A stretch of 64,000 nucleotides of DNA from Ralstonia soli (GTDB lineage Bacteria > Pseudomonadota > Gammaproteobacteria > Burkholderiales > Burkholderiaceae). Below the pieces are notes generated by a model, which was given only the letters and a program-made list of their open reading frames with translations, searched no databases and had not been told where the DNA came from. The position numbers and the translations under genes were made by a program. The stretch is taken from the NCBI RefSeq assembly GCF_023955655.1, contig NZ_JAMXHT010000001.1, positions 744,001 to 808,000 on the forward strand. Reading direction: 5' to 3'. This document shows, piece after piece, positions 58,036-63,943 of the stretch (its first letter is position 1; each line of letters starts with the position of its first letter).

Positions 58036-59079
58036 ATGCACGGTAGCGACGACAGCGGCCAACCCGCATCCGCCGACGCCCCATACGACGGCCTGACGCC
58101 CGACAGCATCCTCGATGCGCTGGCGCAGGTTGGGCTGATGCCGGACGGCCGCATGTTCGCGCTCAACAGCTACGAGAACCGCGTCTACCAAGTCGGCGTG
58201 GAAGACAGCGCACCGGTGGTGGTCAAGTTCTACCGCCCGGGCCGTTGGAGCGACGCACAGATCGTTGAGGAACACGCCTTTACCGCAGAGCTTGCGGCGG
58301 CTGAAATCCCGGTGATCGCGCCGCTGGAAATCGAAGGCAGCACGCTGCACGCGTTCGAGCGCTGGCACTTTGCGGTCTTCCCGCGTTGTGCGGGCCGCGT
58401 GCCCGCGATTGATCGCGACGACACGCTCGAATGGATGGGGCGCTTTCTCGGCCGCATCCACACCGTGGGTGCGCAACGCCCGTTCATGGCGCGGCCCGCG
58501 CTCGACATCGACACCTTCGGCGTGCAATCGCGCGACTGGCTGCTCGAGCACGACTTCATCCCGCCCGATTTGCTGCCCGCTTGGCGCAGCGTGGCCGATG
58601 CCGCGCTCGACGGCGTGCGCCGCTGCTACGACCGCGCAGGCGATGTCTCGCTGCTGCGCCTGCACGGCGATTGCCACGCCTCCAACGTCCTGTGGATCGA
58701 GGAGGCAGACGCCAAGCAGGGCGACCCGCTGCGCTCGGCCGGCCCGCACTTCGTCGACTTCGACGATAGCCGCACCGGCCCCGCCGTGCAGGACTTGTGG
58801 ATGCTGCTGTCAGGCGATCGCGCATCGATGCAGTCGCAACTCGCCAGCCTGCTGGCCGGCTATGAGGACTTCTGCGAATTCGACACGCGCGAGTTGTATC
58901 TCGTGGAAGCGCTACGCACCCTGCGCCTGCTGCACTACAGCGCTTGGTTGGCGCGTCGGTGGAATGATCCGGCATTCCCAGCCGCGTTTCCGTGGTTCAA
59001 CACGCAACGCTACTGGCAGGACCGGGTCTTGGAATTGCGCGAGCAGATCGCGCTGTTGGACGAACCGCCGCTCTGGTGA
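58036..59079 (+). CDS. srkA: Stress-response serine/threonine kinase SrkA (YihE/RdoA)
   Basis: APH-fold protein kinase that counters stress-induced death in E. coli. The 347-residue protein has LRLHGDCHASNVLW (catalytic Asp and Asn), FVDFDDSRTGPAVQDLWMLL (metal-binding DFDD) and NSYENRVYQVGVED at the start of the kinase fold. The C-terminus ends in LLDEPPLW, and the bases coding this end form the left arm of a terminator. Close coupling to rhlE suggests co-transcription. Confidence 0.92.
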   Translation: MHGSDDSGQPASADAPYDGLTPDSILDALAQVGLMPDGRMFALNSYENRVYQVGVEDSAPVVVKFYRPGRWSDAQIVEEHAFTAELAAAEIPVIAPLEIEGSTLHAFERWHFAVFPRCAGRVPAIDRDDTLEWMGRFLGRIHTVGAQRPFMARPALDIDTFGVQSRDWLLEHDFIPPDLLPAWRSVADAALDGVRRCYDRAGDVSLLRLHGDCHASNVLWIEEADAKQGDPLRSAGPHFVDFDDSRTGPAVQDLWMLLSGDRASMQSQLASLLAGYEDFCEFDTRELYLVEALRTLRLLHYSAWLARRWNDPAFPAAFPWFNTQRYWQDRVLELREQIALLDEPPLW

Positions 59080-59097
59080 AACCGAGCGGCGGTTTTT
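59063..59097 (+). terminator. Terminator overlapping the srkA stop codon
   Basis: AACCGCCGCTC (59063-59073) and GAGCGGCGGTT (59084-59094) pair perfectly over eleven positions with a ten-base loop that contains the srkA TGA; TTTTTCTTT follows. The left arm is coding sequence. Confidence 0.88.
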
Positions 59098-59106
59098 CTT
59101 TAGGCT

Positions 59107-60012
59107 TTAAGCGAACTTGCCAGCCTGGAAGTCACGCACAGCCTGGAAGATCTCTTCCTGCGTGTTCATCACAAACGGGCCGTATTGCGCGATCGACTCG
59201 TTCAGCGGCTTGCCCGCCACCAGCAGCACGCGGGTCTCTGCATCCCCCGCGCGGATGACCACGCCGTCGCTGCCTTCCGTGTTGGCGAGGATGGCCATCT
59301 GCTTGTCATCCACGCGTTGCAGGCCTGCGTTGCCCGGTGCTTCGGCATCGCCCACCTGCGCGCTGCCGCGGAACACGTAGACAAACGCGTTGTGCTTTTC
59401 CGGCAGCGATTGCGCGAACGATGCCCCGGCCGGCAACGTGATGTCGAGGTACAGCGGTTGCGTGGCCTCACGCGTCATCGCGCCTTGCACGCCTTGCGAT
59501 GCACCGGCGATCACGCGCACCGCCACGCCGTCTTCCGTCGTGAACTCGGGAATCTCTTCCGACGGGATGTCGCGGTACCACGGCGTCGTCATCTTGTCGC
59601 TGGCGGGCAGGTTCAGCCAGAGCTGGAAGCCTTCCATCACGCCGTCTTCCTGTTCGGGCATCTCCGAATGCACGACGCCGCTGCCGGCCGTCATCCACTG
59701 CACGCCGCCGTGCTGCAGCAGGCCTTCGTGGCCGGCGCTGTCGCGGTGGCGCATGCGGCCCGCGATCATGTACGTCACCGTTTCAAAGCCGCGGTGCGGG
59801 TGATCGGGGAAGCCGGCCAGATAGTCGTTCGGATCATCGCTGCGGAACGCGTCGAGCATCAGAAACGGGTCGAGCCGGCGCTGCAGGTTGTTGGTCAGCA
59901 CGCGGGTGAGCTTCACGCCCGCGCCGTCCGACGTGGGCCGGCCGGTCACGATGCGCTCCACGCGACGAGCGCGCTGCACTTCATTCGCTTGCGATTGCAC
60001 GAGGGTTTCCAT
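59107..60012 (-). CDS. Pirin family protein
   Basis: A 301-residue double-cupin protein. The metal-binding N-terminal cupin shows FPDHPHRGFETVTYM and then HRDSAGHEGLLQHGG with VVHSEMPE. Bacterial pirins act as quercetinases or as metabolic regulators; which holds here is not visible. Start ATG 60012 has AGGAG upstream; the frame is open to ATG 60042. It diverges from a LysR-type regulator, a common arrangement in which the regulator controls the pirin gene. Confidence 0.9.
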   Translation of the reverse strand: METLVQSQANEVQRARRVERIVTGRPTSDGAGVKLTRVLTNNLQRRLDPFLMLDAFRSDDPNDYLAGFPDHPHRGFETVTYMIAGRMRHRDSAGHEGLLQHGGVQWMTAGSGVVHSEMPEQEDGVMEGFQLWLNLPASDKMTTPWYRDIPSEEIPEFTTEDGVAVRVIAGASQGVQGAMTREATQPLYLDITLPAGASFAQSLPEKHNAFVYVFRGSAQVGDAEAPGNAGLQRVDDKQMAILANTEGSDGVVIRAGDAETRVLLVAGKPLNESIAQYGPFVMNTQEEIFQAVRDFQAGKFA

Positions 60013-60164
60013 GTGCTTCTCCTGAAATTCGGGATTTGTCATACCCACAATGTAGGGTGGTTGCCCCTTTTGCACTAGTCGGTTATGGTGGGAAAAAATG
60101 TTGCTCGCGGCGGGACAATTCCAAACAGAGACCGGCAGGCACAACGATCAGAGGAGGAAACCAC

Positions 60165-61082
60165 GTGGATCTGAACCAACTGGCGCTGTTCGTGCGCGTT
60201 GTCGAAGCGGGGAGCTTCACAGCGGCGGCAACGCGACTGGATTTGCCCAAATCGTCCGTCAGCCGGGGCATTGCCGCCCTGGAACAGGATTTGAACGTAC
60301 GCCTGTTACAGCGCACCACGCGCACGCTGCATCTGACCGACGCGGGCCAGAGCTTGTATCAAGTGGCGTCGCATGCACTGGAAGACATCGAGCGCGCCAC
60401 GACGTGCGCGGGCGAGTTGCAGGACTTGCCGCGCGGCAAAGTGCGGATCACGTCCTCGGAAGACGTGGGACGTTTGTTGGTGGCGCCGGTGGCTGCACGC
60501 TTCATGCAGCAATACCCGGAGATCGACCTGGACGTGGTGCTCACGCCGCGCAATGTCGATCTCGTGCAGGAGGGCTTCGATCTGGCGGTGCGTGTCGGAC
60601 GCCTGGCCGACAGCTCGCTGGTGGCGCGGCCGCTGGGCGTGCTGCGTATCGGCCTGTTCGCGTCACCGGAGTACCTGCAGCGCAGTGGCGTGCCGGAGAC
60701 CGTGCACGATCTTGCGGGCCACTGCTGCCTCGACTTTCGCGGCACCGGCCGCGGTGAGACGCAATGGCGCCTGGTCGGCCCCGATGGCCTGAAGACCGTG
60801 GCTGCGCGCGCGCGCCTGAACGCCGACAGCCTTATCTACCTGGAAACGCTGATCGCCTCCGGCGCCGGCATCGGTCCGCTGCCGCTATACGCGAGTGCCG
60901 TGGCGCGTGCCAATGCGCCGCTGCCGCGTCTCGTGCGCGTACTGCCCGACTATGCCACCAGCGGCGAGCCGATCAACCTCGTCACGCCGTCCGCGCGCTT
61001 TGTGCCCAAGCGCGTTCGCTTGCTCATCGACATGCTGACGGAGTCCGTTCGCCAGGAACTTGAGAACGCCGATCCCGCCTGA
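60165..61082 (+). CDS. LysR-family transcriptional regulator
   Basis: A 305-residue LysR regulator. The winged helix-turn-helix is at residues 1-60 (LNQLALFVRVVEAGSFTAAA, then RLDLPKSSVSRGIAALEQDL), followed by a periplasmic-binding-fold effector domain. The start is a GTG at 60165 with GAGGAGGA eight to fifteen bases upstream. It diverges from the pirin gene with 152 bases between, so it probably regulates that promoter. The effector is unknown. Confidence 0.92.
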   Translation: MDLNQLALFVRVVEAGSFTAAATRLDLPKSSVSRGIAALEQDLNVRLLQRTTRTLHLTDAGQSLYQVASHALEDIERATTCAGELQDLPRGKVRITSSEDVGRLLVAPVAARFMQQYPEIDLDVVLTPRNVDLVQEGFDLAVRVGRLADSSLVARPLGVLRIGLFASPEYLQRSGVPETVHDLAGHCCLDFRGTGRGETQWRLVGPDGLKTVAARARLNADSLIYLETLIASGAGIGPLPLYASAVARANAPLPRLVRVLPDYATSGEPINLVTPSARFVPKRVRLLIDMLTESVRQELENADPA

Positions 61083-61154
61083 GGTGTCGCACTACGTTGG
61101 GCGTCAAATGTTGTCACGACTGATCCGGCTGTGCCGATCGCACGGCATCATGCG

Positions 61155-61332
61155 CCCACGTGTGCCGGACAAATACGTCGTTCCCTCCTTGACGTACCCC
61201 CCGTGAAGCGTTGCAGTGCGTCCCCCCGGTGCACTGCGATGTGTCCGGCATACGCGACCCTTGGGTGTTTCTGATCCCGTCACGTTGTGAGAAACACCGC
61301 AGCCCGGACCTCGTTGTCCGGGTTTTTTTTTT
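61155..61332 (+). ncRNA. Candidate structured small RNA with C-rich and anti-Shine-Dalgarno loops
   Basis: Between LysR and a response regulator, on the plus strand, several exact stems nest into one fold. P1 pairs 61159-61171 with 61242-61254 (13 pairs, one G-U). Inside it P2 (TACGTC with GACGTA, 61174-61179 and 61191-61196) closes the loop GUUCCCUCCUU, complementary to a Shine-Dalgarno, and P3 (61209-61219 with 61231-61241) closes a loop with six C. A second CCCCCC joins P2 and P3. P4 pairs GGTGTTTCT (61264-61272) with AGAAACACC (61290-61298). A perfect terminator ends it. No promoter is evident, so the 5' end is a guess; a 3'UTR of lysR is the alternative. Confidence 0.62.
61303..61332 (+). 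terminator. Strong rho-independent terminator of the small RNA candidate
   Basis: CCCGGAC and GTCCGGG form a perfect seven-pair stem with a six-base loop, followed by ten T in a row (61323-61332), the longest T run in the window. Confidence 0.93.
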
Positions 61333-61538
61333 GCCGTTTTCCGCCGAGAGCATACGGATTGCGGCGTTTCAAGGGACTTCACAAATTAGGACTCTTCTCA
61401 TGGTTCGTGGCAAACCTCGCCATGAAAATTGCAGACACGTAACACATGCAACGGATCGCGTTAAAGCGCGACCGATCGGGGCCAACCGGTGCCCGCGCCA
61501 TCCCGGCAGGCATGTGAGCAACTTTCACGGAACCGAAC
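61333..61538. other. Leader of the response-regulator gene
   Basis: About 206 bases between the terminator and the response-regulator ATG. No gene seen on either strand; short frames here lack ribosome sites. It should contain the promoter of the regulator, but no good -35/-10 pair is obvious. Confidence 0.5.
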
Positions 61539-62279
61539 ATGCGAATCGCCTTACTTGAAGACGATCCCTTCCAGAGCGAAGTCATTGTCCAGATTCTTTC
61601 CCAGGCCGGCCACGACGTGGTCACCTATACCGACGGCGCTACCCTGCTGCGCATGCTGGGCCGCTCTTCATATGACATGCTGATCCTCGACTGGCATACG
61701 CCGGGCATGCTCGGCATCGACGTGCTGAGCGTGGTGCGCAGCCGCCACAAGGACGTGTTGCCGATTCTCTTCGTCACGGCCGAAGAGGGTGAGAAGAGCC
61801 TTGTGCGTGCGCTGACGCAAGGCGCCGACGACTACATTGCCAAGCCGTTCCGCATTCCCGAGCTGCGCGCGCGGGTCGATGCGCTGCTGCGCCGTGCGTA
61901 CCCGATTCCGTACGGCCGCCTGCCATTCGACGTGGGCCCGTACCACTTCAACCCGCAGCGCCAGCAGGTCACGCTGCACGGCGAGCCTGTCACGCTGACG
62001 GGTATTGAATTCCAGCTCGCACTGCTGCTGTTCTCGAACGTGGGCCGCACGCTGTCGCGCGACCACATCTTCGGGCAGGTGTGGGGCCGCAACTCGTCGG
62101 AGTACACCCGCACGATCGACAGCCACGTCTCGCGCATCCGCATGAAGCTGAACATCGAGCCGGTGAACGAGGTGCGCCTGGTGGCGGTGTACAAGCACGG
62201 CTACCGGCTGGACCACCTGAAGCCGGCGGATGACAACAGCGCATTGATGGACGATGACGCATTGTCGTACGCCCGCTAA
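61539..62279 (+). CDS. OmpR/PhoB-type response regulator, orphan
   Basis: A 246-residue two-component regulator. The receiver domain has acidic EDD at residues 7-9, the phospho-acceptor Asp51 in LILDWHTPGM, the Thr of LFVTAEEGE and the Lys of IAKPFR. The C-terminal winged helix includes LTGIEFQLALLLFSNVGRTL and the family ending TIDSHVSRIRMKLN with KHGYRL. No histidine kinase is visible beside it, so its partner is elsewhere. It is separated from LysR by the small RNA candidate and followed by a terminator. Confidence 0.93.
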   Translation: MRIALLEDDPFQSEVIVQILSQAGHDVVTYTDGATLLRMLGRSSYDMLILDWHTPGMLGIDVLSVVRSRHKDVLPILFVTAEEGEKSLVRALTQGADDYIAKPFRIPELRARVDALLRRAYPIPYGRLPFDVGPYHFNPQRQQVTLHGEPVTLTGIEFQLALLLFSNVGRTLSRDHIFGQVWGRNSSEYTRTIDSHVSRIRMKLNIEPVNEVRLVAVYKHGYRLDHLKPADDNSALMDDDALSYAR

Positions 62280-62297
62280 GCACGGACCCGCATAACG

Positions 62298-62341
62298 AGG
62301 GCGACACTGCAGCACATGCGGTGTCGCCCTTGGTGCTTTTT
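62298..62341 (+). terminator. Terminator after the response regulator
   Basis: AGGGCGACAC (62298-62307) and GTGTCGCCCT (62321-62330) pair perfectly around a 13-base loop; the tail TGGTGCTTTTTC has a T run six bases after the stem, so efficiency may be moderate. Confidence 0.7.
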
Positions 62342-62352
62342 CATCGGCTGGT

Positions 62353-62685
62353 ATGCTCGACGCCTCTTATTTTTCAGCCGAGGCCGGTGTGCCGCTTGTC
62401 AATCTCAATGCTGTTGCCGAAGCGCTTCCGAATGCGTGGTCGTCCTGCGTGGTGGAGCGGCTTGGCGGCGGCAATTTCAAGGTGCTGCGCATGGATGGCA
62501 CGGCGTATCCGGATGAGGTGCATGACTACGCCGAGGGCCTGCTGGTGATCGAGGGGGGGCTGCGTCTGCGCATTCACGATGCCGCGGTGACGGTCTCGCG
62601 TGGCGAGCTCTACGTGGTGCCGGCCGGGGTGCCGCACAGTGTGGATGCGGGCAGCGCGGGCACGCTGGTCATTCTGGACGTGTAA
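62353..62685 (+). CDS. Small cupin-domain protein
   Basis: A 110-residue single-domain cupin. The first motif region is around YPDEVHDYAEGLLVIEGGL and the second is LYVVPAGVPHSVDAGSAG, with His and Glu positions for a metal. Substrate unknown. It starts 73 bases after the response regulator and ends, on the opposite strand, inside the region that would be the 3' end of an intact monooxygenase gene. Confidence 0.85.
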   Translation: MLDASYFSAEAGVPLVNLNAVAEALPNAWSSCVVERLGGGNFKVLRMDGTAYPDEVHDYAEGLLVIEGGLRLRIHDAAVTVSRGELYVVPAGVPHSVDAGSAGTLVILDV

Positions 62686-62839
62686 GCGAGCCGTCTGTTG
62701 TCTCGCTGACGGGGGCTGGGGCGAATGCGGCATCGCGCGCAGGCGGTTCCGCCAGGCTGCGTTTCATGAGCCAGGTGACGCCGGGGATGCGCAAGCCGGC
62801 CGTGAACACGACGTCGCGCATCCAGCCACCATACCGCGC
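62669..62839 (-). pseudogene. 3' remnant of the FAD monooxygenase beyond an in-frame amber codon
   Basis: Immediately after the TAG at 62840-62842 the same frame stays open for 56 codons, to a TGA at 62669, and reads ARYGGWMRDVVFTAGLRIPG followed by VTWLMKRSLAEP. This resembles the usual C-terminal helices of UbiH-type monooxygenases (an LTPxFQ segment followed by an amphipathic stretch). If the TAG were CAG (Gln), the two parts would make one 404-residue protein. The last 17 bases overlap the cupin gene on the other strand. Confidence 0.6.
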
Positions 62840-63883
62840 CTAGAAACATGGCGTGAGTGCGCGGCTGAGCGTCTGGTAGGCCTGCACGGTGCGCAGCCGC
62901 CGAGCGTGGTAGGCAAGGGCGCCATCCACTGGGCCGTGGGCTTGTACGCACGATGCCAGTGCCAGGGCATCTTGTGCGGCCAGCGTGGTCCCCAGGCCGA
63001 GTTGCGGGCTCATCGCATGCGCGGCGTCGCCGATGACGCAGTAGGGCGGCTTGGCCAGTGCGCGCGGCCATGTGTGGCGATAGAACGCGAAGGGCAGGTC
63101 GTCGTGCGCGCGGATCTGCTCGACGATGGGCGCGGCTTGCGGCCAGAGGCTCAGCACGTGGGCTTTCCAATGCGTGATATCGGTCTGGCGCCAGGTATCG
63201 ACGGCATCGCTGCGCAGGCTCCAGAACATCGAGAGCCGCGTGCGGGTGCCATCCACCTGGGTGGGCAGCAGGCCCATCATTTCGCGTGTGCCGCGAAAGC
63301 GCTGCTGCAGCACGCGCGCGTTCCAGCCGTCGACCCATCCCTGGAACCACAGCGTGCCCCAGCGGTATGTGCTTGACGGCCCAGCCAGACCAGCCGGCTC
63401 GCGCAGCGCGGAGGCTGCGCCGTCGGCAATCGCGAACAGGTCGAAGGTCGATTCACCGCGCGCATGGGTGACGCGTGCGCGCGGGCCGTCGCGATGCAGT
63501 TGCGCGATGCCGCAGCCGAAGTGGAATGTCGCGCCCGCGTGCAGAGCGGCGTTGTAGAGCATTGACGACAGGGCATGCCGAGTGACCGCCCGGCCAGGGG
63601 TATCGGCGTAGTCGATGTCGAGCAGGCGCCAGCCGCGATGGCTCAGGCCGATCAGCCGGTCGATCGGTGCGCCGATGCCTTCCAGCTCACGGCCCACGCC
63701 GAGCGCTTCGAGCGCACGGATCCCCTGCGGCTGGATCAGCAGGCCCGCGCCCACGGCGGTCAGTTGCGGATGCTTTTCGAAGACGTGCACGTCATGCCCC
63801 TCGCGGGCAAACGCAATGGCGGCGGCCAGGCCGGCGTTACCGGCACCGGCAATGCCGATGGACAGCGGGTGGGGTGCAGTCAT
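62840..63883 (-). CDS. FAD-dependent monooxygenase, probably C-terminally truncated
   Basis: A 347-residue UbiH/PHBH-type flavoprotein hydroxylase. The FAD fold is IGIAGAGNAGLAAAIAFARE with the Glu of VFEKHP, and the second FAD motif is VIGDAAHAMSPQLGLGTTLA. The protein ends ALTPCF at a TAG, where relatives continue with FQ and about 50 more residues; the continuation is preserved in frame downstream. Substrate unknown. Start ATG 63883; a GTG 24 bases upstream is possible. Core catalytic regions are intact, so the product may still fold. Confidence 0.82.
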   Translation of the reverse strand: MTAPHPLSIGIAGAGNAGLAAAIAFAREGHDVHVFEKHPQLTAVGAGLLIQPQGIRALEALGVGRELEGIGAPIDRLIGLSHRGWRLLDIDYADTPGRAVTRHALSSMLYNAALHAGATFHFGCGIAQLHRDGPRARVTHARGESTFDLFAIADGAASALREPAGLAGPSSTYRWGTLWFQGWVDGWNARVLQQRFRGTREMMGLLPTQVDGTRTRLSMFWSLRSDAVDTWRQTDITHWKAHVLSLWPQAAPIVEQIRAHDDLPFAFYRHTWPRALAKPPYCVIGDAAHAMSPQLGLGTTLAAQDALALASCVQAHGPVDGALAYHARRLRTVQAYQTLSRALTPCF

Positions 63884-63943
63884 GAGCGTGGCGGATCGTG
63901 TGTCCACGATGATAACGATACGGCACGCAGGTGAAGGCTGCGC

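What the first reader, a model, noticed from the sequence alone, without database searches (positions are those of the whole stretch)
61155..61332. Unassigned structured RNA with an anti-Shine-Dalgarno hairpin and two C6 runs
Five exact stems fold without conflict: a 13-pair closing helix around two hairpins (a three-way junction), a further 9-pair stem and a terminator with ten T. The loop GUUCCCUCCUU could pair with ribosome-binding sites, and two CCCCCC runs sit in exposed positions, as in C-rich-loop trans-acting sRNAs of alpha- and gamma-proteobacteria. I do not recognise it as 6S, RNase P, SRP RNA or tmRNA. Chance formation of this many long perfect stems in 180 bases is unlikely.
Basis: partly seen in the sequence, partly recalled or inferred. 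Interest (0 to 1): 0.8.

Follow-up and report, generated by a model that had tools for sequence, protein, structure and literature searches.

The report
Conserved small RNA of one genus
This looks like a real gene for a small non-coding RNA, found once in each genome examined of a single bacterial genus, that probably tunes the translation of other genes by base pairing; its transcript and targets have not been shown.

Summary
Window 61155-61332 (+) folds at -82.1 kcal/mol (z -7.1, 0 of 200 shuffles as good), with the stems, loops and ten-T terminator described. An orthologue lies once in each of 16 of 16 genomes held of the genus, between the same LysR and OmpR-type genes in 15 of 15 loci where both could be seen. 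Across the 16, 98.9% of pair cells are kept and four pairs have two-sided changes; four of five measures beat all 500 shuffles. No Rfam family reaches its gathering score here or in 15 orthologues. A covariance model found no convincing copy in 283 genomes outside the genus.

It is most likely a free-standing trans-acting sRNA: a conserved promoter-like stretch precedes it, and an unconserved spacer separates it from the regulator's own conserved leader. A partial target scan favours ttcA, but that leader's own hairpin is a rival reason for its conservation.

The parts
60165..61082 (+). lysR-family regulator gene upstream (GTG start chosen here); context
   Evidence: Pfam HTH_1 and LysR_substrate; same neighbour in 16 of 16 loci
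61103..61119 (+). conserved upstream element GTYAAATGTTGTSACGA, possible activator site centred 44-48 bp before the presumed start
   Evidence: exact in 13 of 16 sequences of the alignment, conservation island; no second exact copy in 5 genomes
61144..61151 (+). conserved GGCATCAT, presumed -10 region (CATCAT 61146-61151)
   Evidence: exact in 12 of 16; role inferred; no consensus sigma-70 promoter found by scan
61155..61332 (+). small RNA gene (presumed start 61155-61159, end in U tract 61323-61332)
   Evidence: fold, covariation, 16 of 16 genomes of the genus
61157..61256 (+). three-way junction: closing helix 61157/61159-61170 with 61243-61254/61256
61174..61196 (+). hairpin 1 with anti-SD-like loop (GUUCCCUCCUU, 61180-61190)
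   Evidence: exact CUCCUU in 9 of 16; one pair with a double change
61208..61242 (+). hairpin 2 with invariant CCCCCCGGUG apical stretch (C6 61222-61227)
   Evidence: 16 of 16
61264..61298 (+). hairpin 3; loop GAUCCCGUCAC (61273-61283) in 16 of 16, best seed candidate
61302..61332 (+). intrinsic terminator, 8-pair stem and ten T
61380..61459 (+). separate conserved leader/promoter block of the downstream response regulator; context
61539..62279 (+). OmpR-type response regulator gene; context
   Evidence: Pfam Response_reg and Trans_reg_C

Best explanation
A single-copy, genus-specific, free-standing small regulatory RNA of about 175 nt. It starts shortly after the lysR stop codon from its own (probably activator-dependent) promoter and ends at its own terminator. 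A rigid three-way junction and a third hairpin present C-rich loops, and these pair with G-rich ribosome-binding regions of mRNAs to block translation. Shown here: the conserved structure, the single-copy distribution, the synteny, the terminator-like end and the separate conservation islands. Inferred: transcription, the start site, base-pairing action, the roles of the loops, any chaperone.
For: z -7.1. 16 of 16 genus genomes carry one copy. Four pairs with double changes in 11 cells, 98.9% of cells paired against 27-44% in slid versions; 0 of 500 shuffles reach the observed value on four of five measures. Same neighbours. Conservation islands for promoter-like DNA, RNA, and a distinct leader for the next gene, with a divergent spacer of variable length after the terminator. 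No aligned reading frame with a common stop: the only start shared by at least 13 of 15 sequences (frames of 10 codons or more) lies in hairpin 3 and runs through the terminator to different stops. The apical C6 and GAUCCCGUCAC loops are in 16 of 16. The hairpin 3 loop pairs with the ttcA leader better than the best gene of any of 150 shuffled loops.
Against: No transcript data. Promoter scan found no sigma-70 consensus, and the upstream element defines no regulon. The anti-SD and C6 loops show no excess pairing in the partial target scan. One measure, further pair types, does not exceed shuffles (408 of 500). Many pairs never vary, and the closing helix and the terminator have no double change. 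The ttcA lead has a rival reading.
Confidence: 0.72

Rival explanations
1. A structured 3' untranslated region of lysR: the transcript is only made as the end of the lysR mRNA (or cleaved from it) and serves as its terminator and stabiliser, possibly releasing an sRNA.
For: It begins 72 nt after the lysR stop, same strand, with one terminator found for both.
Against: A separate conserved island (GTYAAATGTTGTSACGA and GGCATCAT) sits between the stop and the fold, where a promoter for a separate transcript would be, and the bases around it are variable. A plain terminator needs no 100-nt three-way junction (inference).
Confidence: 0.15
2. A cis-acting leader (riboswitch or attenuator) of the downstream response regulator, with the terminator as the switch.
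For: Three-way junction followed by a terminator, same strand as the regulator gene, upstream of it in 15 of 15 loci where it could be seen.
Against: 206 nt lie between the T run and the regulator ATG. The spacer after the terminator is unconserved in sequence and length, and is followed by a second conserved block that looks like the regulator's own promoter and leader. An anti-terminator fold was not searched for.
Confidence: 0.07
3. A protein-binding RNA (sponge or scaffold) whose conserved loops bind a protein, not mRNA.
For: The C6 and GAUCCCGUCAC loops are the same in 16 of 16, as expected for a protein site as well as for a seed; the C6 and CUCCUU loops show no excess of mRNA pairing.
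Against: No known protein motif recognised (from memory and by eye: the GGA triplets lie in stems, so a CsrA/RsmA decoy is unlikely).
Confidence: 0.06

Closest known systems
6C / B11 sRNA of actinobacteria (Rfam RF01066)
   Same: C-rich loops that pair with G-rich 5' regions; in M. abscessus B11 represses an eccB4 5' UTR reporter, which holds a tract of six G, through either of two C-rich loops (PMC10470900, passages)
   Different: Match only 23.1 bits against gathering 47; different architecture (three-way junction plus a third hairpin), other phylum (recalled); only one of the two C6 runs is conserved
mmgR / suhB RNA of alphaproteobacteria (RF00519)
   Same: Weak resemblance of hairpin 3 and terminator, 61250-61339 (20.7 bits, E 0.18)
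   Different: Below gathering 41; the match leaves out the three-way junction apart from its last bases
anti-hemB of Burkholderia (RF02837) and Betaproteobacteria toxic sRNA (RF02278)
   Same: Related bacteria (recalled); weak matches at 61221-61331 and 61266-61331 (19.4 and 19.9 bits)
   Different: Below gathering 49.5 and 50; in the toxic-sRNA alignment the agreement is mostly the terminator; the anti-hemB alignment was not viewed
C-rich-loop trans-acting sRNAs of proteobacteria (CcsR/cuckoo type, recalled)
   Same: C-rich loops that could mask ribosome-binding sites
   Different: No family match obtained here; the comparison is from memory

Membership tests
6C RNA (RF01066) | Covariance-model score at or above gathering (47 bits) | tested here: not met
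   23.1 bits in the window; no gathering hit in window or 15 orthologues
6C RNA (RF01066) | Two hairpins each with a C-rich (C6) loop | tested here: not met
   C6 at the tip of hairpin 2 in 16 of 16, but the hairpin 1 loop is CUCCUU-like and variable; the other C run lies in the junction and is six C in 2 of 16
mmgR/suhB (RF00519) | Score at or above gathering (41 bits) | tested here: not met
   20.7 bits
anti-hemB (RF02837) / Betaproteobacteria toxic sRNA (RF02278) | Score at or above gathering | tested here: not met
   19.4 and 19.9 bits against 49.5 and 50
trans-acting bacterial sRNA (general kind) | Conserved stand-alone structured gene with terminator-like end | tested here: met
trans-acting bacterial sRNA (general kind) | Own transcript | not testable with these tools
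   no RNA-seq held; PMC12819619 gives only totals of sRNAs in the passages seen
trans-acting bacterial sRNA (general kind) | Pairs with distant mRNA targets | tested here: inconclusive
   ttcA is the best candidate among 249 genes from about 0.8 Mb, 0 of 150 shuffles as good, but a leader hairpin is a rival reason for its conservation
trans-acting bacterial sRNA (general kind) | Hfq or ProQ dependence | not testable with these tools
   only the U-rich 3' end is seen

The most novel reading that the evidence does not exclude
A genus-specific multi-loop translational regulator: a rigid three-way junction displays a copy of the 16S anti-Shine-Dalgarno sequence, an invariant C6 loop and a separate specific seed (GAUCCCGUCAC), so that one RNA combines weak general masking of ribosome-binding sites with strong silencing of a few mRNAs, ttcA (tRNA 2-thiocytidine synthesis) among them.
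Probability: 0.12. Interest if true: 0.6.

Novelty: new member of a known kind. Interest (0 to 1): 0.4.

Why it matters
It is a covariation-supported RNA that matches no Rfam family at gathering score and is present in each of the 16 genomes held of its genus, so it is probably important there. It gives a concrete gene to map and test, and shows which loops to test first: the conserved ones, not only the anti-Shine-Dalgarno loop. Whether it is already among the sRNAs counted by RNA-seq in this presumed genus (629 per sample on average in PMC12819619, passages) could not be checked.

Tried and rejected
Homologues outside the genus: blastn over 120 genomes of the family hit 10, all of the genus, and 0 of the other 110. 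The covariance model over 299 genomes hit the 16 of the genus strongly and 26 others at E up to 1, best 34.2 bits (stricter filters, up to 9 candidates scored per genome). I inspected the four outside hits with loci: they rest mainly on the terminator with incidental pairs. The best (L039, 105 bases) also has a short hairpin and a C run, and a distant relative is not excluded. The other 22 were not inspected. The model's effective sequence number is 0.96, so distant relatives could be missed. The exact hairpin 3 pattern hit 1 of 399 genomes of the order, the window's own, which was the only one of its genus in that sample. An 18-base seed in genome-contig hit six unrelated genomes; I treat these as chance. 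Plasmids: no match to the RNA; 24 kb of the window matched 17 records only in short pieces, and the names listed do not identify the genus.

Promoter regulon: the element with up to 2 mismatches gave, beside the 5 loci themselves, 4 sites in 5 genomes, while the reversed control pattern gave 7: chance level. One of the 4 (L069) lies inside an open reading frame; the others were seen only as sequence.

Target scan: about 0.8 Mb from each of three genomes, a crude gene caller (545, 674 and 641 genes), 249 orthologous start regions. The first version used unrelated shuffles for loops of unequal length. One search used fixed loops with the same shuffle for all species. There CCCUCCUU, the C6 loop and the linker were no better than shuffles (54 of 80, 48 of 80, 36 of 150); the 12-nt core of hairpin 3 reached 7 of 150 and the 17-nt loop 0 of 150. 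The junction loop was tried only (best -17.2, best control -17.3). Five loops were tested, so the ttcA result is suggestive only. ttcA pairing is -17.0 to -27.6 kcal/mol in 16 of 16 genomes (one search used wrong starts for 11 genomes and is discarded). In three genomes of the nearest genus by TtcA identity it is -12.9 to -13.3 at the aligned start, up to -15.8 at another candidate start, and -9.5 in a fourth genome of another genus. At candidate starts in three more genera it reaches -18.0, as good as the weakest case in the genus. The ttcA leader has its own hairpin over the same bases with one two-sided change (6 of 16 leaders folded, no shuffle control); in G125 that hairpin is kept while the pairing weakens to -17.0. 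So ttcA stays a lead.

Coding: no conserved small reading frame of 10 codons or more.

Full report
What was claimed and what is there. The RNA folds at -82.1 kcal/mol; 200 dinucleotide-preserving shuffles average -52.4 (sd 4.2), z -7.1, none as stable. The 16 sequences of the genus fold with z from -3.0 to -7.1 against 40 mononucleotide shuffles each. The terminator scan finds the 3' stem-loop, but shuffles of the region give 0.9 such sites on average.

Distribution. A blastn search of 120 genomes of the family hit 10, all of the window's genus. All 16 genomes of the genus that are held have one copy; the other 15 are 82-88% identical to the window over the matched part. A covariance model from the 16 gave 189-205 bits in those 16 genomes. 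Nothing above 34.2 bits came from the remaining 283 of 299 family genomes; the four best outside hits are mainly terminator matches with incidental pairs, and 22 weaker ones were not inspected. The pattern of the hairpin 3 loop occurs in 1 of 399 genomes of the order, the window's own, the only one of its genus in that sample.

Context. The order lysR, RNA, response regulator is kept in 15 of 15 loci where both genes could be seen; the sixteenth has lysR and is cut by a contig end on the regulator side. Pfam confirms LysR and OmpR-type proteins. A 15-species alignment of the whole gap shows three conserved islands. The first, right after the lysR stop, is GTYAAATGTTGTSACGA (exact in 13 of 16 sequences) and, 24 bases on, GGCATCAT (12 of 16). 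The second is the RNA. The third, after a spacer variable in sequence and length, is a block at 61380-61459 before the regulator. If CATCAT (61146-61151) is the -10 element, transcription would start near 61155-61159, just where the fold begins. The conserved element would then be centred 44-48 bases upstream of the start, as for an activated promoter. That is inference: the scan found no consensus promoter. The element has no second exact copy in 5 genomes, and its 4 two-mismatch sites are no more than the 7 of the reversed control. The arrangement favours a free RNA over a regulator leader or a plain lysR tail.

Structure is under selection. On 16 distinct sequences 98.9% of 799 pair cells are standard pairs. 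Four pairs have changes on both sides in 11 cells (one pair in hairpin 1, one in hairpin 2, two in hairpin 3); shuffles give 0.6 pairs and 1.5 cells on average, and 0 of 500 reach the observed value on four of the five measures. Slid versions keep only 27-44% of cells. Against: the number of further pair types is not above shuffles (408 of 500), the closing helix and the terminator have no two-sided change, and 28 of the 50 pairs never vary. The tool also warns that related sequences can exceed shuffles without structure.

Which parts matter. CUCCUU is exact in 9 of 16. The junction C run is six long in 2 of 16 and ranges from three to six. CCCCCCGGUG is in 16 of 16, GAUCCCGUCAC in 16 of 16, and the longer GACCCUUGGGYGUUUCYGAUCCCGUCAC in 15 of 16. 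Hence the best candidates for contact with a partner are the apical C6 loop and the loop of hairpin 3, not the anti-Shine-Dalgarno loop alone, although that loop is the most open one in the window copy. There is no conserved small reading frame.

Targets. I took about 0.8 Mb from each of three genomes and compared 249 orthologous start regions. With matched shuffles only the hairpin 3 loop stood out: ttcA, mean -25.2 kcal/mol, best of 150 shuffles -23.8; its 12-nt core alone was matched by 7 of 150. Five loops were tried. The site lies about 25 to 7 bases before the AUG. It pairs at -17.0 to -27.6 in 16 of 16 genomes and at -12.9 to -13.3 at the aligned starts of three genomes of the nearest genus (other candidate starts in other genera reach -18.0). 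Two facts weaken it. The same leader bases form a hairpin within the ttcA mRNA with a compensatory change of its own (6 leaders). And in genome G125 the hairpin is kept while the pairing with the RNA drops to -17.0. I therefore hold ttcA as a lead. The scan covers about a seventh of the window's genome.

Known families. No Rfam family reaches its gathering score in the window or in 15 orthologues. Sub-threshold resemblances are 6C 23.1 bits, suhB/mmgR 20.7, Betaproteobacteria toxic sRNA 19.9 and anti-hemB 19.4. Functionally the nearest parallel is 6C/B11: in Mycobacterium abscessus B11 represses an eccB4 reporter whose 5' UTR holds six G, through either of two C-rich loops (PMC10470900, passages). 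The present RNA is not a member by score or by architecture.

Literature. Full-text searches for sRNAs in Ralstonia, for C-rich-loop sRNAs and for structured RNA motifs in Ralstonia listed no paper whose title or abstract start is evidently about this RNA; some searches listed only part of their hits. I saw listings, and passages of two papers (PMC12819619; PMC10470900). PMC12819619 counts 629 sRNAs per sample on average in R. pseudosolanacearum; this RNA may be among them, and supplements could not be read. So 'not in print' is not established.

Verdict. A real, conserved, probably free-standing regulatory RNA gene, restricted to one genus as far as these searches reach: a new family of a known kind. 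The mechanism, pairing of C-rich loops with start regions, is likely but unproven. Interest is moderate.

Noticed in passing
window 61380-61459: Second strongly conserved block (CACAAATTAGGACTCTTCTCATGG ... CCATGAAAATTGC ... TAACACATGCAACGG) upstream of the response regulator in 15 loci aligned; its core patterns were in 6 of 6 genus loci and 0 of 12 loci of RR homologues from other genera. It contains an imperfect CATGG...CCATG inverted repeat; perhaps an autoregulatory site or a leader element.
   Followed up: partly
L191 and 15 orthologues, ttcA leader (G000:C1, about 423340-423405): The ttcA 5' leader in this genus has a predicted hairpin over the G-rich stretch before the AUG, with one two-sided change among six leaders folded: a possible cis-regulatory element of its own.
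   Followed up: partly
window 61539-62279: By eye, no histidine kinase gene was noticed beside the OmpR-type response regulator among the ORFs listed for 59000-63900; only three proteins were scanned against Pfam.
   Followed up: no
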